Virus record (IMG/VR): IMGVR_UViG_3300031951_001186
Span: 1 to 23,971 of that record
DNA: 23,971 bases
Reading direction: 5' to 3' (one strand)
Source of the DNA: a virus
The translations under genes and the position numbers were made by a program. Below are positions 2,735-11,950 of this stretch, piece by piece. The first letter of the stretch is position 1; every line of letters begins with the position of its first letter. The notes beneath the pieces are model-generated. The model saw only the letters and a list, made by a program, of their open reading frames with translations, did no database searches and had not been told where the DNA came from.

Positions 2735-3289
2735 ATGGTAGCACAAATTGAATTAAATTATCAAACTTTAGTTAGTCCTATTGTAAAAAATCTACCTAAA
2801 GTTTATTTAGACGAGTCTATAGAAATTAAAGTAAAAAATTTAGCTACTTTAATTGCTGAACGAAAGAAACAAGAAAAAGGGTATAAGGGTGATTTTAATA
2901 AATTAGAAAAAAGATATACCACTGGTTTATTAGGAGAAGCAGCTTTAGAAAAGTTATTGGGAGTAGAAATTATAGATTGGGAAGTAGGAGATTCAAGTAA
3001 ATATGATGTTGAGGATTTTAATAAAATAGGACTTAATTGCGGAGTAAAAACAGTAGAATATGGTAAGTTTCCTTTAATACAAGTTGTTCCTGTAAGAGAT
3101 GAAATAATTGTTATAAAACATCCCACTGAATTAAAATTTATAATTTGTGGTTTGTATAAAAAAGATATATTAGAAAAATATCAAAGTAGAGAGTTGGTAC
3201 TTGATTTAGGTGTTAGAGAAACTAAAACAGCTTTTTATGGTATTCCTTTTGGTCTTATTATTAAAACTGTAGATGATTTAAAAAAATAA
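2735..3289 (+). CDS. Possible PD-(D/E)XK endonuclease-like protein
   Basis: 184 residues. A basic helical N-terminus (about 30-60) leads into TTGLLGEAALEKLLG with Glu68, then SKYDVEDF with Asp91, then a beta strand ending GVKTVEYGKFPLI with Lys105. The order Glu helix - Asp - (x)VK is that of PD-(D/E)XK endonucleases. However, the residue two before the Lys is Gly103 rather than Asp/Glu, so the active site is degenerate or I have the wrong strand. The C-terminal half is beta-rich (IQVVPV, EIIVIKH, FIICGLY) as expected for this fold. It is the last protein gene before the RNA cassette; its TAA is 2 bp before the tRNA. A structural or DNA-binding role without catalysis is the alternative. Confidence 0.75.
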   Translation: MVAQIELNYQTLVSPIVKNLPKVYLDESIEIKVKNLATLIAERKKQEKGYKGDFNKLEKRYTTGLLGEAALEKLLGVEIIDWEVGDSSKYDVEDFNKIGLNCGVKTVEYGKFPLIQVVPVRDEIIVIKHPTELKFIICGLYKKDILEKYQSRELVLDLGVRETKTAFYGIPFGLIIKTVDDLKK

Positions 3290-3291
3290 AT

Positions 3292-3363
3292 TGCGAGGTA
3301 GAGCAGAGGTAGCTCGTGAGTCTCATAATCTCAAGGTCGTAGGTTCGAGTCCTACCCTCGCAA
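3292..3363 (+). tRNA. tRNA with CAU anticodon (elongator Met or AUA-reading Ile)
   Basis: A complete cloverleaf is visible: 7-bp acceptor TGCGAGG/CCTCGCA, 4-bp D-stem GAGC/GCTC, anticodon arm TGAGT/TCTCA around the loop CTCATAA (anticodon CAT), and T-arm GTAGG/CCTAC with loop TTCGAGT. The 31-39 pair is a T-T mismatch. The 1-72 pair is T-A and the anticodon stem lacks three G-C pairs, so this is not an initiator tRNA. The loop CTCATAA occurs both in elongator tRNA-Met and in tRNA-Ile2, whose C34 is changed to lysidine to read AUA; sequence alone does not decide. ATA codons are frequent in these genes, so an Ile2-type role would make sense. CCA is not encoded. Confidence 0.9.
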
Positions 3364-3510
3364 CAAAGTGCTAGTAGGCCACTAGATCGTAGTTCCTCTT
3401 AGCATCTTGATATGGGTTTTTGAACCTATACTTGATGCACAAACAAGAGCCTAATCGTAATGTAGGATGAGTTGGCAACTCTCACTGACATCGTTCAAAA
3501 GTTGCAATAT
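3364..3510 (+). ncRNA. Hairpin-rich non-coding stretch between two tRNAs
   Basis: These 147 bases hold no credible ORF but several foldable elements. CTAGT/ACTAG pair at 3371-3385. A long composite hairpin at 3396-3449 has the stems CTCTT/AAGAG, GCATC/GATGC and TATGGGTT/AACCTATA around a TTTG loop, with one G-T pair. A tight hairpin GAGTTGGCAACTC lies at 3469-3481. It sits inside a polycistronic RNA between a CAU tRNA and an aberrant class II tRNA and just upstream of the terminase genes. It could be a stable RNA released by tRNA processing, a processing spacer, or a packaging-related element. The secondary structure is by eye; the function is unknown. Confidence 0.4.
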
Positions 3511-3629
3511 TGTAGGGTGGTGAAATTGGCAGACACGCTATCTTGTCTCGATAGTGTTGGTTATTCTCCACAGAAATAAGCTTTTTGTTGAGAATAGTCA
3601 ACATGGAGGTTCGACTCCTCCCCCTACAG
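3511..3629 (+). tRNA. Aberrant class II tRNA: Leu-like body, GUC anticodon, giant variable arm
   Basis: The acceptor TGTAGGG pairs with CCCTACA, the D-arm is GTG/CAC with an AAATTGGCAGA loop as in tRNA-Leu, the anticodon stem is CTATC/GATAG with loop TTGTCTC, and the T-arm is GGAGG/CCTCC with loop TTCGACT. The loop gives anticodon GTC (3545-3547), which reads Asp codons. The bases G2-C71, G10, C38 and discriminator G73 also match the known Asp identity set. The variable arm (3555-3604, 50 nt) is about three times normal: a 14-bp stem with two wobble pairs (TGTTGGTTATTCTC with GAGAATAGTCAACA) and a 21-nt loop. T at position 37 is also unusual. It could be a working Asp tRNA, a mis-charging Leu/Asp chimera, a decoy for tRNA nucleases, or a decaying gene; perfect stems argue against decay. 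Confidence 0.75.
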
Positions 3630-3643
3630 CTAAAATTTAAAAA

Positions 3644-3865
3644 ATGCAAGATCAGTCATATTTAAACGATTATGTATTTCACTATAGTTCATTTAATGAG
3701 CAATGGGCTGCTATACCTAGGGAACAATACACTCAATATTGGAGCAACTATAATCTTAAAGGTATAATCAGAAGTCGTTCATTTAATACTCTTCTTGATA
3801 TTATACATAAAACAAAAGGAGACTTAAATGATCTTAATAAAAAATTAAACATAACTAATGAATAG
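3644..3865 (+). CDS. Unknown small protein upstream of terminase
   Basis: 73 residues, not recognised. The N-terminal half is aromatic-rich (Tyr, Trp, Phe), with YVFHYSSFNEQWAAIP and a YTQYWSNYN stretch; the C-terminal half is a charged helix. It begins 14 bp after the tRNA and overlaps the terminase start by 8 bp (ATG AATAG), so it is probably translated together with terL. A small terminase subunit is conceivable from position, but length and sequence give no positive support. Confidence 0.7.
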   Translation: MQDQSYLNDYVFHYSSFNEQWAAIPREQYTQYWSNYNLKGIIRSRSFNTLLDIIHKTKGDLNDLNKKLNITNE

Positions 3866-6059
3866 TTATAAAACGATACCTACATATGATAATGGAAATT
3901 GGACAACCACTGTATTTTATACAAGGGAAGGGTATCGTGATTTTGTAAGATCTGTTTTTATAGATGCTGGTCCAGATGAGGGATATAAATTTACAGTATC
4001 AATATCAAAGCAATTTAATAACGAAGCTAGAAGGTTTCAAAAATTAGGATATTATTGTAATGCTCCTATTAAAAGTAAAGACTTTATTGCATACTGGAAT
4101 GATCAAAAAGATAAATGCAGAAATGGAGTAATTTATAAAGAAGATGGATTAACCTGGTACATAACTCGTGATTATTACATGTGGCTTAATTTTCTTCCTA
4201 TTTATGATAAGGAGGAAAAAAGATTTGACTTTGCTAAAGTAAGGGATGCCCAATATCATATGGCTTTATATGAGTGTTTGGGTGAGCTTTATTGGAAACA
4301 TCTACCAATATTAAAGAAGCGTCAGATTGCATCATCCTATTTTCATATGGCTAAACTTCTTAATCAATATTGGTTTGAAGAAGGTTCTGTAAACAAAATA
4401 GGTGCTAGTCTTAAAGATTATATCTCTGAGAAAGGATCTTGGAGAATGCTTAATGAATATCGTAACTTTCTAAATGAACATACAGCTTGGTATAGACCAT
4501 CTGAACCTGATAAGATATTCTCATGGCAACAGAGAATTAAAGTGAGAATTGGAGGTCGTGATACATACAAGGGTAATAAATCTATTATTACAGGTACATC
4601 ATTTGAAAAAGATCCTACAAATGGTGTGGGTGGTCCAGTAACTTATTTCTTTCATGAAGAAGCAGGTATTGCTCCTAAGATGATGGATACATATGAGTTT
4701 ATGAGACCTGCTATGCAATCTGGTATGGTGACAACAGGTACTTTTATTGCAGCAGGATCAGTGGGTGATCTCGATCAGTGTAAGCCTTTAAAAGATATGA
4801 TACTATATCCTCATAGATATGGTATGTTTGCTGTTACAACTAACTTAATTGATAATAAAGGTACTATTGGTGAAAGTGGTCTTTTTATTCCTGAGCAATG
4901 GAGTATGCCTCCATATATAGATGAGGCAGGAAACTCATTAGTAAAGGAAGCTCTAGAAGCTATAAAAGAAGAACGTCTTCAGTGGTATAAAGATCTTCCT
5001 CCTGATCAATATCAGCTTCGTATATCTCAGAAGCCTACAACTATAGAAGAAGCATTTGCTACCAGAAAAGAGTCAGTATTCCCTCCACATCTTGTATCAA
5101 AACAACTCCAACGTATTGAAGATAAACAATATCCTGTTGAATATTTAGATTTGTACAGAGATGCTGAAGGAAAAGTAATAGATAAACCATCTAGAAAAAC
5201 TCCTATTATGGAGTTTCCAATATCTAAAAAAGCAGAAGATAAAGAAGGAGTAATATGTGTTTATGAACGTCCGGTTAAAGATCCAACATTTGGAATGTAT
5301 TATGCATCCATAGATCCTGTGGGTGAAGGTAAAACAACTACATCTGATTCTCTTTGTGCAATATATATTCTTAAAAATCCAGTTGAAGTAATAAAAAAAG
5401 AAGGAGAAAAGATATCACAACATATAGAAAGAGATACTATTGTAGCAAGTTGGTGTGGTAGGTTTGATGATATAAAAAAGACACATGAACGGCTTGAGAT
5501 GATGATTGAATGGTATAATGCTTGGACACTTGTAGAAAATAACGTGTCTTTATTTATACATTATATGATGGAACGTAAAAAACAAAGATATTTGGTTCCT
5601 AAAAATATGATGTTATTTCTTAAAGATATAGGAGCTAATACAAATGTCTTTCAAGAATATGGATGGAAAAACGTGGGAACTTTATTTAAAGGTAATCTTT
5701 TATCATATGGTATAGAATTTTTAAAAGAGGAGCTTGATCATGAAACACTTGAAGACGGATCAATTGTTAAAACTGTTTATGGTGTAGAACGTATTCCTGA
5801 TCCCATGCTTCTTAAAGAAATGCAGGATTACCAAGATGGGTTAAACGTAGATAGACTTGTAGCATTTTGTGCTTTAGTAGCTTTTGCTAAAGTGCAACAA
5901 GCTAACAGAGGGATGTCTAAACGTACAGAAGTTACAAATGAAAATTTGGATAACTCCGGTAAATTTAGTAAATTAAATTATAGTCCCTTTAGATATATTG
6001 GTACACATAAAAGCATTTCAGGAAGATCAGTTCGAAATGCTTTTAAAAATTTAAAATGA
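3858..6059 (+). CDS. terL: Terminase large subunit (TerL)
   Basis: 733 residues, the length of TerL proteins in large Bacteroidota phages. TerL is the ATP-driven motor that pushes DNA through the portal and the nuclease that cuts the concatemer. The N-terminal domain shows a degenerate Walker A-like segment KKRQIASSYFHMA (about 153-165) and a clear Walker B, VTYFFHEEAG (about 260-270), with HEE where DE is more usual. The C-terminal RNase H-like nuclease begins at YYASIDPVGEG with the first catalytic Asp at about 485, and LVENN (about 558-562) supplies the second acidic residue. About 150 residues before Walker A, rich in aromatics, form an extended N-terminal region. The start at 3858 overlaps the upstream gene; the TGA overlaps the ATG of the 34-aa ORF. 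The identification rests on motifs plus the following portal gene. Confidence 0.9.
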   Translation: MNSYKTIPTYDNGNWTTTVFYTREGYRDFVRSVFIDAGPDEGYKFTVSISKQFNNEARRFQKLGYYCNAPIKSKDFIAYWNDQKDKCRNGVIYKEDGLTWYITRDYYMWLNFLPIYDKEEKRFDFAKVRDAQYHMALYECLGELYWKHLPILKKRQIASSYFHMAKLLNQYWFEEGSVNKIGASLKDYISEKGSWRMLNEYRNFLNEHTAWYRPSEPDKIFSWQQRIKVRIGGRDTYKGNKSIITGTSFEKDPTNGVGGPVTYFFHEEAGIAPKMMDTYEFMRPAMQSGMVTTGTFIAAGSVGDLDQCKPLKDMILYPHRYGMFAVTTNLIDNKGTIGESGLFIPEQWSMPPYIDEAGNSLVKEALEAIKEERLQWYKDLPPDQYQLRISQKPTTIEEAFATRKESVFPPHLVSKQLQRIEDKQYPVEYLDLYRDAEGKVIDKPSRKTPIMEFPISKKAEDKEGVICVYERPVKDPTFGMYYASIDPVGEGKTTTSDSLCAIYILKNPVEVIKKEGEKISQHIERDTIVASWCGRFDDIKKTHERLEMMIEWYNAWTLVENNVSLFIHYMMERKKQRYLVPKNMMLFLKDIGANTNVFQEYGWKNVGTLFKGNLLSYGIEFLKEELDHETLEDGSIVKTVYGVERIPDPMLLKEMQDYQDGLNVDRLVAFCALVAFAKVQQANRGMSKRTEVTNENLDNSGKFSKLNYSPFRYIGTHKSISGRSVRNAFKNLK

Positions 6060-6165: not shown

Positions 6166-8916
6166 ATGCAAATATATAATGCCTTACAGTTAAAAAAGGG
6201 TGCTAAAGTAGAGTACAATAAGATGGGTACTCTTATTCAGCCTTTTCAATTTGTAACAGAAAAAGAAAAAGATGATCAGTGGAGAGCTTGGAACCTTGAC
6301 TGGTTAGAATTTCAAGGTATGAAACAACTTAGACGTAATGCAAGACGTCTAATGAAAAACTACAAACTTGCTAAAGGTATTATAGATAAGCAAGATTATA
6401 TAGTGGAAGAAGATAATGAAATGGCTGATTTGATTGACACTCTCACTAAAGAGGATGTATCAGCATTTGAGCTTAAGTTTTATCCTATTATACCTAATGT
6501 TATTAATGTTCTTTGTAATGAATTTTCTAAAAGAACATCTAGAATAATGTTTAGAGCAGTTGATGACATGTCATATAATGAGATGTTAGAAGAAAAAAGA
6601 GCAATGATTGAACAAGTTCTTTTACAACAAGCTCAACAAAAGCAAGTTCATAAGTTAATGGAAATGGGTATTGACCCTGCTTCAGAAGAAGCTGGTCAAG
6701 AATTAAATCCTGAAAAATTAAAAACTCTTCCTGAAATAGAAGATTTTTTTAAAAAGGATTATAGATCGATGATTGAAGAATGGGCTGATCATCAAATGAA
6801 AGTTGATGAAGAAAGATTTAAAATGCAAGAACTTGAAGAACGTGCTTTTCGTGATATGCTGATTACAGATAGAGAGTTTTGGCATTTTAATATGATGGAG
6901 GATGATTATGAAATGGAACTTTGGAATCCTCTTCTTACTTTTTATCATAAATCTCCAGATGTTCGTTATATATCCCAAGGAAATTGGGTAGGTAAACTAG
7001 ATATGATGTCAATTTCTGACGTTGTAGATAAGTACGGTTGGATGATGACTGATGAACAATTGGAAGCTTTAGAAGCAATTTATCCAGCAAGATCAGCTGG
7101 GTATGCTATTCAAGGAATGCAAAACGACGGTAGTTATTATGATCCGAAAAGAACACATGAATGGAACACACAAATGCCTTCACTGGCTTATAGACAGTTC
7201 ACTTCCTTATATGATGCCGGGAGTCAATTTGGAGACATTGTCCAATGGATATTATCTGACTCAGAGGACATGCAAGACTTCGGTAAAAGTTATATGCTTA
7301 GGGTTTCAACTATCTATTGGAAAAGTCAAAGAAAAGTGGGACACCTTACAAAAATCACATCAGAAGGTGATTTAATACAAGAAATAGTATCTGAAGAATA
7401 TAAAGTGAGTGAAAAACCACTTTATAATCAGGAATTGTTTAAACAAAAAACAAAAGACAACTTAATTTTTGGTGAGCATATAGATTGGATATGGATTAAT
7501 GAAGTATGGGGTGGAGTTAAAATTGGTCCTAACAGACCTGCATTTTGGGGTATGAATAATCCAGGAGGTATTAATCCTATTTATCTTGGACTTAATGGTG
7601 GTAGACCAGGTAGAGTTCCTTTCCAGTTTAAAGGTGATGCAACTCTTTATGGTTGTAAACTTCCTGTAGAAGGGGCTGTGTTCTCTGATCGCAATACGCG
7701 ATCTGTAAGTCTTGTAGACTTAATGAAGCCTTATCAGATAGGTTATAACATTGTAAACAACCAAATAGCAGATATTCTTGTAGATGAATTAGGTACAGTG
7801 ATTATGCTTGACCAGAATGCTCTTCCTCGTCACTCATTGGGTGAAGACTGGGGTAAGAACAATCTATCAAAAGCATATGTAGCAATGAAGAACTTTCAAA
7901 TGCTACCACTTGATACATCTATTACAAATACAGAAAATGCTCTTAATTTCCAGCACTATCAAGTGTTAAATCTTGAACAAACTCAACGTTTGATGTCAAG
8001 GATTCAACTTGGTACATATTTTAAAAATCAAGCATTTGAAGTAATTGGTTTAAACCCACAACGTATGGGTCAGCAAATAGCTCAGCAACAAACTGCTACA
8101 GGAGTTGAACAAGCTATGAATGCTAGCTATGCTCAAACAGAACAATACTTTATACAGCATAGTGACAACTTGATGCCTCGTGTACATCAGATGAGAACTG
8201 ATCTTGCTCAATACTATCATTCTAAAAAACCAAGTATTCGTCTTCAATATATTACAGGTGGAGATGAAAAAATTAACTTCCAAATGGAAGGAACTAACTT
8301 GTTAATGAGAGATCTTAATATTTTCTGTACTACAAAAACTAATTCTCGTGCAATGATGGAGCAATTAAAACAACTAGCTCTAAATAACAATGCTACAGGT
8401 GCCTCAATTTATGATTTAGGAAGTATTATTAAATCTGAGTCAATAGCTGAACTTACAGGTGTTCTTAAGAAAGCTGAAGAAAAAGTACAACAAGCTAAAC
8501 AACAAGAACAAGAACATCAGCAAAAACTTCAGCAAGAACAAATCGCAGCACAAGAAAAACAACTTCAAGAATCTCAGAAATTTAAAGCTGATGAAGCTGC
8601 TAAAGATAGACAAGCTCAAGTTACTATTGCAGAAATTAGAGCAGCTGGGTATGGAGCTATGCAAGATATTAATCAAAATCAACAGTCTGATTATCAAGAT
8701 GCTTTAGAAAAAATTCAAAAGCAAGAAAATTATACAGACACAATGAATTATAAAAGAGAGCAAGAAATAAATAAAAATATACAAAATCAAGAAAAAAATA
8801 ATCTTGAAAGGGAAAAGCTTCAGGCACAAAAAGAAATAGCTGATAAACAACTTCAAATAGCCCGTGAAAATAAAAATAAGTTTGATGCACCAAAACCTAA
8901 AGAAAAGAAGAAATAA
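6166..8916 (+). CDS. Portal protein
   Basis: 916 residues. The portal forms the ring at the capsid vertex through which DNA passes. The evidence is size, position directly after terL, and family-type segments: PIIPNVINVLCNEFSKR near the N-terminus, EEWADHQMKVDE (about 204-215), DREFWHFNMMEDDYEMELWNP and FYHKSPDVRYISQGNWVG (about 265-280), which are typical of large Bacteroidota phage portals. The C-terminal 150 residues (from about 765) are a Gln/Lys/Glu-rich coiled coil ending in a basic KPKEKKK tail, much longer than in classical portals. A later ATG at 6223 (residue 20, MGTLIQPF) is an alternative start that would begin closer to the conserved part. The gene ends 112 bp before the scaffold-like gene. 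Confidence 0.85.
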   Translation: MQIYNALQLKKGAKVEYNKMGTLIQPFQFVTEKEKDDQWRAWNLDWLEFQGMKQLRRNARRLMKNYKLAKGIIDKQDYIVEEDNEMADLIDTLTKEDVSAFELKFYPIIPNVINVLCNEFSKRTSRIMFRAVDDMSYNEMLEEKRAMIEQVLLQQAQQKQVHKLMEMGIDPASEEAGQELNPEKLKTLPEIEDFFKKDYRSMIEEWADHQMKVDEERFKMQELEERAFRDMLITDREFWHFNMMEDDYEMELWNPLLTFYHKSPDVRYISQGNWVGKLDMMSISDVVDKYGWMMTDEQLEALEAIYPARSAGYAIQGMQNDGSYYDPKRTHEWNTQMPSLAYRQFTSLYDAGSQFGDIVQWILSDSEDMQDFGKSYMLRVSTIYWKSQRKVGHLTKITSEGDLIQEIVSEEYKVSEKPLYNQELFKQKTKDNLIFGEHIDWIWINEVWGGVKIGPNRPAFWGMNNPGGINPIYLGLNGGRPGRVPFQFKGDATLYGCKLPVEGAVFSDRNTRSVSLVDLMKPYQIGYNIVNNQIADILVDELGTVIMLDQNALPRHSLGEDWGKNNLSKAYVAMKNFQMLPLDTSITNTENALNFQHYQVLNLEQTQRLMSRIQLGTYFKNQAFEVIGLNPQRMGQQIAQQQTATGVEQAMNASYAQTEQYFIQHSDNLMPRVHQMRTDLAQYYHSKKPSIRLQYITGGDEKINFQMEGTNLLMRDLNIFCTTKTNSRAMMEQLKQLALNNNATGASIYDLGSIIKSESIAELTGVLKKAEEKVQQAKQQEQEHQQKLQQEQIAAQEKQLQESQKFKADEAAKDRQAQVTIAEIRAAGYGAMQDINQNQQSDYQDALEKIQKQENYTDTMNYKREQEINKNIQNQEKNNLEREKLQAQKEIADKQLQIARENKNKFDAPKPKEKKK

Positions 8917-10330: not shown

Positions 10331-11950
10331 ATGCCGACTCCAGTTTTAAACAATGGTATATTCCTACGTGACAACAGCTATCAGACTAGCTCACACGTAG
10401 ATTCGTACCACCTTTCCAATCTCCTTAAGAGTGCAGAACCTACAGATTTAGGTCCTGTTGATCTTTGGGCAATGGCACAAAAAGTAGAAATGCCTTTGTA
10501 TCAAATGTCTTCTTTTGGTGGTAAGAACGTTATCTCAGTTGATAATGCTCGTGGTGAGTACAAATGGCAAATTCCAGTTGCCCAAGATCTTCCATATATT
10601 GTGGAAGACATTGAACTCAACAATACTAAAAAAGGTATTGATGGTCAATCATTTAAAATTAAAGTTAACAAGCGTTACTTTGGACATGGTGATATCATCA
10701 CTTATGACAAATATAACGGTGTAGAAATGTACATTACTGCTGATGATGTTATTCCAGCTGGTGATGGTTTCATTTATACAGTACAATTGGTTAACAACGA
10801 CAACAACAAATTCTTGGATAACAAGTATTTGAAAGTTGGTACAAAAATCTTCCGTAAAGGTTCTGCTCGTGGTGAATACGGAGAACGTTTTTCCGATATC
10901 GGTAACGTATCAGCAGGTTTTCGTGAGTTCTATAACTACGTAGGTGGTGCTGAAGCTCACGTACATTATTCTATTTCTTCTCGTGCTGACCTTATGATGA
11001 AAGGTGGTATGAAAGCTGATGGAACTGTACCTGTAGTTGAGCTTTGGAGAAACTTTGATAAAAATGTTGATCCTTCTGTTACCAATTTGGAAACAATGGC
11101 AGAAAAAATGGGTAAAGATTACGTGAAAAAAGCTTACCAATCTGGACAGCTTACACGTTCTTTCTTGACCACTTTGGAAGCTGCTCACCTGACTAAAATT
11201 GCTAATGACATCGAAACCTACTTGATGTGGGGACAAGGTGGACGTATTAAGCAAGATGGTCCAGATGATCTTCGTTTGTCTGTGGGTCTTTGGAAACAAC
11301 TTGATAACTCTTACAAGCGTATCTACAACCGTGGTTCTTTCAATCTTGATTTGTTTAAGTCTGAGATCTTCAACTTCTTCAATGGTAAAGTTGAATTTAA
11401 AGGACCTGAACCCAATCGTGCATTGATTGTTCAAACTGGTCTTGGTGGTATGAAGCTTGTTAACGAAGCAATTAAGAAAGAAGCTGTTAACTCAGGTCTG
11501 GTTCTTAATGCTAGTGAACTTGGAGCTGTAACTGGTAAAGGAATGGATCTGAACTTCGGATTTGCTTACACTAGCTACATCATCCCATTCTTGGCTAACG
11601 TTAAGTTTGTACTGAATCCTGCATTTGATAACGTACATACTAACGATATTGAAAATCCAATTATTGATGGTTTCCCTCTTAGTTCATATAATTTCATTAT
11701 CTTTGATATCACTGATAACACTAACGATAATATCTTCTTGCTGAAACTCAGCTGGGATAATCAACTGAAGTGGTTCTATCAGAATGGTACTATGGACTAT
11801 ATGGGTCGTACTCAAGGATTCCAATCTTCTGGTAACTTTAACGGATACCGTGTATTCATGACACAAACTATGCCGGCTATCTGGGTTAAAGATCCTACCA
11901 AAGTGTTGAAGATTGTTATGAGAAACCCAATCACTGGTGGTTCATTCTAA
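10331..11950 (+). CDS. Major capsid protein
   Basis: 539 residues. Identified from position (portal - scaffold-like - this gene - terminator), length, and the mixed alpha/beta composition expected of an HK97-fold shell protein of a large phage. Codon use is distinctly different from its neighbours: many C-ending and preferred codons (AAC, GGT, CGT, TTC, GAC), the pattern of a very highly expressed gene. Family-like segments include DLGPVDLWAMAQKVEMPLYQ near the N-terminus and LSWDNQLKWFYQNGTMDY near the C-terminus. Expression appears to be governed by the 14-nt leader motif upstream and ends at a terminator 13 bp downstream. The HK97 fold itself cannot be proved from sequence by eye. Confidence 0.85.
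   Translation: MPTPVLNNGIFLRDNSYQTSSHVDSYHLSNLLKSAEPTDLGPVDLWAMAQKVEMPLYQMSSFGGKNVISVDNARGEYKWQIPVAQDLPYIVEDIELNNTKKGIDGQSFKIKVNKRYFGHGDIITYDKYNGVEMYITADDVIPAGDGFIYTVQLVNNDNNKFLDNKYLKVGTKIFRKGSARGEYGERFSDIGNVSAGFREFYNYVGGAEAHVHYSISSRADLMMKGGMKADGTVPVVELWRNFDKNVDPSVTNLETMAEKMGKDYVKKAYQSGQLTRSFLTTLEAAHLTKIANDIETYLMWGQGGRIKQDGPDDLRLSVGLWKQLDNSYKRIYNRGSFNLDLFKSEIFNFFNGKVEFKGPEPNRALIVQTGLGGMKLVNEAIKKEAVNSGLVLNASELGAVTGKGMDLNFGFAYTSYIIPFLANVKFVLNPAFDNVHTNDIENPIIDGFPLSSYNFIIFDITDNTNDNIFLLKLSWDNQLKWFYQNGTMDYMGRTQGFQSSGNFNGYRVFMTQTMPAIWVKDPTKVLKIVMRNPITGGSF

What the first reader, a model, noticed from the sequence alone, without database searches (positions are those of the whole stretch)
3511..3629. 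Class II tRNA with a Leu-type body, Asp anticodon and identity bases, and a 50-nt variable arm
Seen: all stems pair perfectly, the D-arm and body are those of tRNA-Leu, yet the anticodon is GUC and the discriminator is G. G2-C71, G10, C38 and G73 are also present, which is the known E. coli Asp identity set. Known: Asp tRNAs are class I with a short variable loop, so a class II Asp tRNA is not expected. The variable arm is a 14-bp stem with a 21-nt loop. Inference: a Leu tRNA may have been converted to Asp use, possibly to resist host anticodon nucleases or to bind a protein through its arm; a non-translational RNA role is also possible.
Basis: partly seen in the sequence, partly recalled or inferred. 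Interest (0 to 1): 0.82.

Follow-up and report, generated by a model that had tools for sequence, protein, structure and literature searches.

The report
Hidden giant-armed tRNA-like RNA family
A phage carries one copy of a large, overlooked family of tRNA-shaped RNAs with oversized side arms, which is widespread in the chromosomes of Bacteroidota bacteria and looks built to carry an amino acid without reading the genetic code.

Summary
The feature is real. Window 3511-3629 (+) is a perfect class II cloverleaf with anticodon GUC, C38, G2:C71, G73 and a 50-nt variable arm. It is not a lone mutant but one member of an RNA family that ARAGORN mostly misses and for which I found no Rfam family beyond generic tRNA.

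The family has about 215 distinct sequences in phage contigs and Bacteroidota chromosomes and strongly covarying pairs. It occurs in 85 of 118 sampled genomes of one order. In 86 of 120 named chromosomal loci an Lrp/AsnC-type gene lies on the opposite strand, 82 of them within 300 nt.

The loop keeps a pyrimidine at position 37, where 193 of 197 ordinary tRNAs in the same loci have a purine. Ordinary tRNA-Asp coexists in hosts and some of these phages, so a plain decoding role is unlikely.

The first pair is U1:A72, the known signal for amidation by GatCAB. GatB is present in 84 of 85 and 31 of 31 RNA-positive genomes. My best reading is a non-decoding, Asp-charged RNA that GatCAB turns into Asn-RNA. 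Family and structure are shown; charging, amidation and function are inferred.

The parts
3511..3629 (+). class II tRNA-like RNA, phage member of the family
   Evidence: (R1 91 bits, E 1.5e-21)
3511..3517 (+). acceptor stem 5' strand TGTAGGG; U1 pairs with A72
3520..3536 (+). D-arm: stem GTG/CAC, 11-nt loop AAATTGGCAGA
3538..3554 (+). anticodon arm CTATC-TTGTCTC-GATAG; anticodon GTC at 3545-3547, U37, C38
3555..3604 (+). 50-nt variable region: 13-14 bp stem, 21-nt loop containing AAGCTT, two unpaired nt before the T-stem
3605..3621 (+). T-arm GGAGG-TTCGACT-CCTCC
3622..3629 (+). acceptor 3' strand CCCTACA plus discriminator G73; C74 is encoded, CCA is not
3292..3363 (+). ordinary phage tRNA-Met(CAT) upstream in the same intergenic stretch (context, not part of the RNA)
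3858..6059 (+). terminase large subunit (context); in 29 of 80 terminase-fetched loci a family copy lies upstream on the same strand

Best explanation
The element is a phage copy of a conserved Bacteroidota RNA that is made and matured like a tRNA but is specialised not to decode. Shown here: one covarying class II fold; near-invariant U1:A72, G2:C71, U3:A70 and G73; loop YUGUCUC (rarely YUSUCYC) with a pyrimidine at 37; wide chromosomal distribution, 1-6 copies per genome; a neighbouring AsnC/Lrp-type gene in most host loci; and GatB in nearly every RNA-positive genome. Inferred: AspRS charges the RNA through GUC, C38, G2:C71 and G73; GatCAB amidates Asp-RNA to Asn-RNA through U1:A72; position 37 and the large arm keep Asn from being inserted at Asp codons; the Asn is released or sensed, under control of the AsnC-type regulator. 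A phage copy would raise Asn supply during infection. That the family exists and is structured is near certain (about 0.97). The confidence given is for the charging-and-amidation mechanism.
For: Structure: 36 pairs, 22 with changes on both sides, 97.8% of cells paired, 0 of 500 shuffles as good. Conservation in the pattern-selected set: U8 G9 216/216; G73 in 215/216, the exception being a misparse (L295); TGT/ACA acceptor ends in 211/216. Copies found by the covariance model, not by the loop pattern: 63 of 63 distinct copies have G73; loops CTGTCTC 44, TTGTCTC 14, TTGTCCC 4, CTCTCTC 1 (13 of 57 loci gave no parse by that script). Asp identity (G34, U35, C36, C38, G73, with G2-C71) and U1-A72 as the amidation signal are stated in PMC9976931 and PMC4206432 (passages). 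Position 37 is a purine in 193 of 197 ordinary tRNAs of the same loci. Ordinary tRNA-Asp is present in 3 of 3 host genomes checked and in at least five phage loci with the RNA. GatB over cut-off: 84 of 85 RNA-positive against 19 of 33 RNA-negative genomes of one order (recount 105; Fisher p 2e-8). Within its 51 GlnRS-positive genomes: both 39, GatB only 1, RNA only 1, neither 10. In the phylum sample 31 of 31 RNA-positive genomes have GatB, against 211 of 265 others (p 0.002). AsnC-family neighbour: 86 of 120 named loci and 42 of 57 model-found loci (Pfam PF01037).
Against: No expression, charging or amidation data. The co-occurrence is confounded by common descent, and the two sampling centres (G001, G002) were chosen because they carry the RNA. 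Across the phylum sample 61 genomes have GlnRS and GatB but no strong hit to the RNA, so the RNA is not the general reason why GatCAB is kept. One of them (G192, 76% of its chromosome read) shows no such RNA and has a tRNA-Asn with U1:A72. PMC4206432 reports U1-A72 tRNA-Asn in all 18 genera with AsnRS, GlnRS, GatCAB and no Asn synthetase, Bacteroidetes among them, so ordinary tRNA-Asn could do this job; tRNA-Asn of RNA-positive hosts could not be read here. PMC9976931 calls G1-C72 crucial for bacterial Asp identity, and this RNA lacks it, so charging by AspRS is itself uncertain. TIGR01536 (AsnB family) is over cut-off in 104 of 118 genomes. One host copy has C34 (L343), and 3 of 216 copies have A1:U72. 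The UGUCUC copy in the D-loop of ten phage sequences is not explained by aminoacylation.
Confidence: 0.32

Rival explanations
1. A non-coding regulator or sponge: the tRNA fold serves for maturation and stability, the UGUCUC loop binds an RNA or protein, and the AsnC/Lrp-type neighbour controls it. Charging is incidental.
For: The loop is conserved while its stem varies and pairs. Ten distinct phage sequences carry a second YUGUCUC in a D-loop hairpin, against 0 of 206 normal D-loops and 0 of 216 variable arms. Signs of an independent transcription unit: promoter-like TAnnTTTG at various distances upstream in a part of the copies, and terminator-like hairpins downstream in several printed loci. 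A regulator gene is adjacent.
Against: Near-invariant acceptor end and G73 are not needed for a sponge. GAGACA is not enriched near gene starts. The D-loop copies are probably one evolutionary event.
Confidence: 0.3
2. An auxiliary decoding tRNA-Asp used under special conditions, for example stress or phage infection.
For: Perfect cloverleaf; GUC, C38, G2:C71 and G73 kept; tRNA-like leader (A at -2 and -4; its link to RNase P is recalled) and encoded C74 as at most ordinary tRNA genes there.
Against: Pyrimidine at 37 in every parsed copy; ordinary tRNA-Asp coexists; 5 of 63 model-found distinct copies have other loops, one of them with C34; no G1:C72; arms of up to 123 nt.
Confidence: 0.18
3. 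A decoy or replacement that protects against tRNA-cleaving toxins or defence nucleases.
For: Phages carry it, some with two UGUCUC loops and many with a self-complementary arm segment.
Against: Conserved in host chromosomes with stable gene neighbours, unlike patchy defence genes; no nuclease partner was looked for or found.
Confidence: 0.08
4. A serine- or leucine-charged class II tRNA with a misleading anticodon.
For: Class II body; an A73 to G73 change can switch Leu to Ser identity (PMC9976931, passage).
Against: G73 argues against LeuRS. Two nt between variable stem and T-stem (one search lists them) resemble Leu more than Ser arms (recalled). The near-invariant GUC loop would then be unexplained.
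Confidence: 0.05

Closest known systems
tRNA-Leu (class II)
   Same: Body, 3-bp D-stem, nearly the same D-loop as phage tRNA-Leu in the same loci (AAATTGGCAGA against AAATTGGTAGA), class II arm
   Different: G73 instead of A73, GUC loop, pyrimidine 37, U1:A72, arm of 21-123 nt
bacterial tRNA-Asp
   Same: G34 U35 C36, C38, G2:C71, G73
   Different: U1:A72 instead of G1:C72, pyrimidine 37, class II arm, unrelated body; ordinary tRNA-Asp coexists
tRNA-Asn of the two-step pathway (non-discriminating AspRS plus GatCAB; PMC4206432, passages read)
   Same: U1:A72 and the predicted Asp-then-Asn chemistry
   Different: Here the anticodon is that of tRNA-Asp and the RNA appears not to decode; amidation is untested
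tRNAOther of Bacillus cereus (PMC3399842, only the start of the abstract in a search listing was seen)
   Same: A pseudo-tRNA that does not function in translation
   Different: Described there for one B. cereus strain; this family spans several Bacteroidota orders and their phages and has an ornate arm
tRNA-Sec and allo-tRNAs
   Same: Class II tRNAs with unusual proportions
   Different: 7+5 bp acceptor/T-stems here, not 8/5 or 9/4 (recalled); RF01852 scores 20.7 bits, below its cut-off of 47

Membership tests
canonical tRNA-Asp | GUC anticodon, C38, G73, G2:C71 | tested here: met
   Window and nearly all members; one member with C34 (L343)
canonical tRNA-Asp | G1:C72 first pair | tested here: not met
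   TGT/ACA ends in 211 of 216; ordinary tRNA-Asp in the loci 9 of 10 G1:C72
canonical tRNA-Asp | class I short variable loop and purine at 37 | tested here: not met
   Variable region 21-113 nt in the parsed set, up to 123; pyrimidine 37 in all; ordinary tRNAs purine in 193 of 197
tRNA-Leu | A73 and a Leu anticodon | tested here: not met
   G73 in all but one misparse; model R1 separates it from tRNA-Leu in the same loci
tRNA-Ser / tRNA-Sec | Ser-type arm junction; 8/5 acceptor/T-stem for Sec | tested here: inconclusive
   Two nt at the junction and 7+5 bp stems do not fit; RF01852 20.7 bits, below cut-off; the yardsticks for the junction and stem lengths are recalled
a specific known RNA family (Rfam 15) | match above gathering score | tested here: not met
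   Only generic tRNA RF00005: 37.1 bits for the window copy, 37.9 for L083; family copies in L059, L081, L102 and in six chromosomal loci gave no listed match
GatCAB substrate | U1:A72 first pair | tested here: met
   rule from PMC9976931 and PMC4206432
GatCAB substrate | amidation of the charged RNA | not testable with these tools
   Needs biochemistry
GatCAB substrate | absence of the extra D-loop base 20a | not tested
   Numbering of the class II D-loop was ambiguous
decoding tRNA | used on ribosomes | not testable with these tools
   Needs polysome or reporter data

The most novel reading that the evidence does not exclude
A dedicated non-decoding carrier tRNA for asparagine: AspRS charges it through the GUC anticodon, GatCAB amidates it through U1:A72, and pyrimidine 37 with a giant arm keeps the Asn-RNA off the ribosome. 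An AsnC-type regulator controls it in hosts, and phages carry copies whose arms have gained self-complementary loops and may pair with themselves.
Probability: 0.27. Interest if true: 0.95.

Novelty: new variant of a known kind. Interest (0 to 1): 0.86.

Why it matters
A structured RNA found in 85 of 118 sampled genomes of one bacterial order, and carried by phages that include a 636-kb record, has no Rfam family of its own that I could find and is mostly missed by ARAGORN. If it carries an amino acid without decoding, it would be a tRNA-like RNA devoted to metabolism or sensing rather than translation, and would help explain why some bacteria keep GatCAB beside both AsnRS and GlnRS. The family gives immediate, testable predictions about charging, amidation and phage use.

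Tried and rejected
Packaging RNA linked to the terminase: rejected as a general role, because the RNA is chromosomal in hosts and because 51 of 116 pattern-found phage loci have no tblastn match to any of 12 window proteins. Some of those neighbours read by eye as GroEL, DNA polymerase or radical-SAM proteins; no family search of them succeeded (one search failed and was not repeated).

Loop as an antisense seed: GAGACA ranks 581 of 4096 hexamers around gene starts in chromosomal loci and 3668 of 3857 in phage loci. AGACAG ranks 91 in chromosomal loci but 3767 in phage loci. No consistent enrichment.

Kissing-loop dimer as a feature of the whole family: in phage copies 35 of 44 distinct segments after GACCAC hold a palindrome of 6 nt or more (shuffles mean 10, maximum 18 in 300), but in chromosomal copies only 11 of 33 (mean 9, maximum 17), so it is at most a phage feature. 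The window copy has AAGCTT in its arm loop but lacks the GACCAC module; one such palindrome is not significant by itself.

The rule that GatB with GlnRS implies the RNA held in one order but failed over the phylum sample: 27 genomes with all three, 61 with GlnRS and GatB only. A look at 76% of one exception (G192) found only ordinary tRNA-Leu class II genes. Scarcity of Shine-Dalgarno motifs in 20 genomes (0 to 3 per region) agrees with the sample being Bacteroidota but is a rough check.

AsnB as a test of Asn auxotrophy: TIGR01536 has 0-9 matches per genome, the listed frames mostly 610-670 aa, and probably includes paralogues, so it was not decisive. AsnA is over cut-off in 6 of 118.

Dropped before counting: one misparse (L295) inflates the variable-region range to 136 nt and is the one copy without G73; L294 is a fusion of two tandem copies. 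One search left 13 of 57 model-found loci without a parse. The evolutionary count of 5 phage/chromosome changes rests on a quick tree of short sequences and is not used.

Literature searches for a prior description found none (open-licence PubMed Central only). PMC4206432, PMC9976931 and PMC7609411 were read as passages; the others only as listings.

Full report
What is in the window. The window is a 23,971-nt phage record with a crAss-like packaging module: terminase 3858-6059, portal 6166-8916, major capsid 10331-11950 (PHROGs; tblastn 25-27% identity to the best-listed crAss-like and related phages). Between a gene ending at 3289 and a small ORF at 3644 lie an ordinary tRNA-Met(CAT) at 3292-3363 and the element at 3511-3629. 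Its cloverleaf is complete. RF00005 gives 37.1 bits against a gathering score of 29, yet ARAGORN and a default Rfam scan of the whole window miss it. It folds better than all 200 shuffles (z -4.9), and a strict finder gives 0 hits in 200 whole-window shuffles.

It has many relatives. The best 80 of 562 terminase relatives were fetched without regard to the RNA. In 29 of 80 loci an anticodon-blind finder sees a class II element on the terminase strand with a variable arm of 26 nt or more, always with loop YTGTCTC and G73; five loci (L052, L059, L073, L075, L076) show ordinary tRNA-Leu with A73, and two (L053, L056) a spurious reverse-strand parse. Many of the 80 loci hold little sequence upstream of the terminase, so absence there means little. 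Of the 120 genome loci, 119 are titled Bacteroidota and one is a 'Rickettsiales' MAG (L302): Sphingobacteriales 62, Cytophagales 24, Saprospirales 14, Chitinophagales 10, Flavobacteriales 5, no order given 4, Rickettsiales 1. A 636-kb phage record, LR756504.1, also holds one (R1 133.1 bits). Blastn of two other members against the GenBank phage collection and of one against plasmids gave no convincing further hit. ARAGORN calls four distinct family copies as tRNA-Asp (L083, L169, L174, L194) and none in ten chromosomal loci that hold copies.

Anatomy of the family. One search collected 216 distinct sequences (83 phage, 133 chromosomal), selected by loop YTGTCTC. One (L295) is a misparse and one (L294) a fusion. 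U8 G9 is invariant; G73 is in all but the misparse; the acceptor end is TGT/ACA in 211, and three have A1:U72. The variable region runs from 21 to 113 nt in that set and to 123 nt. In 28 aligned members of similar length, RNAalifold gives 36 pairs, 22 with changes on both sides; 97.8% of cells are paired, and none of 500 shuffles reaches any of the five measures. The arm has its own helices and conserved internal loops (GAUAAAC facing GCUAAC), often with a GGGUUGACCAC motif (GACCAC in 64 of 83 phage and 50 of 133 chromosomal members). The window copy has a simpler arm, a single hairpin, but fits the model (91 bits, E 1.5e-21).

Not selected by the loop pattern. Loci found by the covariance model, which itself was trained on YUGUCUC loops, give 63 distinct parsed copies: CTGTCTC 44, TTGTCTC 14, TTGTCCC 4, CTCTCTC 1, all with G73 (13 of 57 loci gave no parse by that script). 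Position 37 is a pyrimidine in all of them. Of 197 ordinary tRNAs called by ARAGORN in the same loci, 193 have a purine there; the four exceptions are three '???' calls and one tRNA-Pro.

Distribution and neighbours. In a phylum sample of 296 genomes, 31 (the centre G001 included) have strong hits of 85 bits or more over at least 108 nt. The many weaker hits of about 83 nt look like tRNA-Leu, and that search used stricter filters that lose weak matches. In the order of the Aquirufa genome G002 (Cytophagales, recalled) 85 of 118, the centre included, have hits at E <= 1e-15, with 1 to 6 copies. An Lrp/AsnC-family gene (PF01037) is present in 86 of 120 named chromosomal loci and 42 of 57 model-found loci. 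In the named loci it is on the strand opposite to the RNA in all 86, with its start 128-290 nt away in 82 and 334-1792 nt in four. It was found in 0 of 198 phage loci, many of them short. In 83 chromosomal copies the leader has A at -4 in 88% and at -2 in 92%, and the base after G73 is always C; ordinary tRNA calls there also mostly end in C (174 of 197).

Is it a decoding tRNA-Asp? Three of three host genomes checked have an ordinary class I tRNA-Asp with a CCUGUCACG loop, and phage loci L166, L182, L126, L139 and L147 carry ordinary tRNA-Asp too. With the pyrimidine at 37, the loop variants and the giant arm, a plain decoding role is unlikely, though not excluded.

Why Asp and GatCAB. PMC9976931 (passages) gives bacterial Asp identity as G73, G34, U35, C36, C38 with the pairs G1-C72 and G2-C71, the first called crucial. 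All but G1-C72 are kept here almost without exception. The same review states that amidation of Asp-tRNA is signalled by U1-A72 and prevented in tRNA-Asp by G1-C72 and U20a; here the pair is U1:A72. The missing G1-C72 is thus both the main argument for amidation and an argument against easy charging by AspRS. GatB (TIGR00133) is over cut-off in 84 of 85 RNA-positive and 19 of 33 RNA-negative genomes of the order (p 2e-8). AsnRS is over cut-off in 115 of 118. Among the 51 with GlnRS over cut-off, which do not need GatCAB for Gln, 39 have both GatB and the RNA, 1 GatB only (G351), 1 the RNA only (G385) and 10 neither (p 9e-9). In the phylum sample all 31 RNA-positive genomes have GatB, and 27 of them have GlnRS. 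Against this, 61 other genomes there have GlnRS and GatB without a strong RNA hit, so GatCAB is kept for other reasons too, and common descent confounds all these counts. In G192, one of the 61, tRNA-Asn has U1:A72, the classical arrangement, and PMC4206432 reports the same for the Asn-synthetase-free genera it surveyed (passage). Seven distinct phage tRNA-Asn in loci with the RNA have G1:C72. Host tRNA-Asn of RNA-positive genomes could not be read. Five RNA-positive genomes with GatB, GlnRS and AsnRS (G002, G194, G253, G304, G363) lack AsnA and have no AsnB-family match over cut-off.

Two phage peculiarities. Ten distinct phage sequences have an inserted D-loop hairpin that repeats YUGUCUC, while 0 of 206 normal D-loops and 0 of 216 variable arms contain UGUCUC. 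The arm segment after GACCAC holds a palindrome in 35 of 44 distinct phage segments (shuffle mean 10, maximum 18 of 300) and is not enriched in chromosomal copies (11 of 33, mean 9). Both suggest added RNA-RNA or protein contacts in phages and favour the rival 'regulator or sponge' reading.

Verdict. The finding is larger than a phage oddity: it is a conserved tRNA-like RNA family of Bacteroidota and their phages. The GatCAB carrier mechanism is my best guess at about one in three. The window proteins have 6.7% Asn, which would suit a phage need for Asn but proves nothing.

Noticed in passing
window 3365-3510: A 146-nt spacer between tRNA-Met and the RNA, with weak folding (z -1.3) and no Rfam match.
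   Followed up: partly
40 phage loci, e.g. L052, L059, L081, L082, upstream of the terminase: A conserved, apparently structured stretch of about 110 nt (AGGTTGACTGG ... AAGCAGATGTCCACGCACCCATCTTCTGCTT) between the tRNA-like RNA and the terminase genes; its core motif is in 40 phage loci and in none of the chromosomal loci. Possibly another ncRNA or a ribozyme.
   Followed up: partly
L083 6234-7505: A family copy of 96 nt called tRNA-Asp by ARAGORN, followed by a stretch ending in a terminator-like hairpin, then tRNA-Leu, Leu, Ser, Tyr and Trp.
   Followed up: partly
L097 3663-3738 and L167 607-682: ARAGORN calls tRNA-??? with a four-base anticodon (agtc) a few hundred nt from a family copy.
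   Followed up: no
L294: Two tandem copies appear fused by a deletion into one 170-nt element.
   Followed up: no
L302 (Rickettsiales isolate NP5 contig): The only non-Bacteroidota title among 120 genome loci carries family copies and the AsnC-type neighbour; probably a mis-binned contig.
   Followed up: no
L206 and 15 other chromosomal loci: A protein that I read by eye as SufB (Fe-S cluster assembly) recurs near the AsnC-type gene and the RNA.
   Followed up: no
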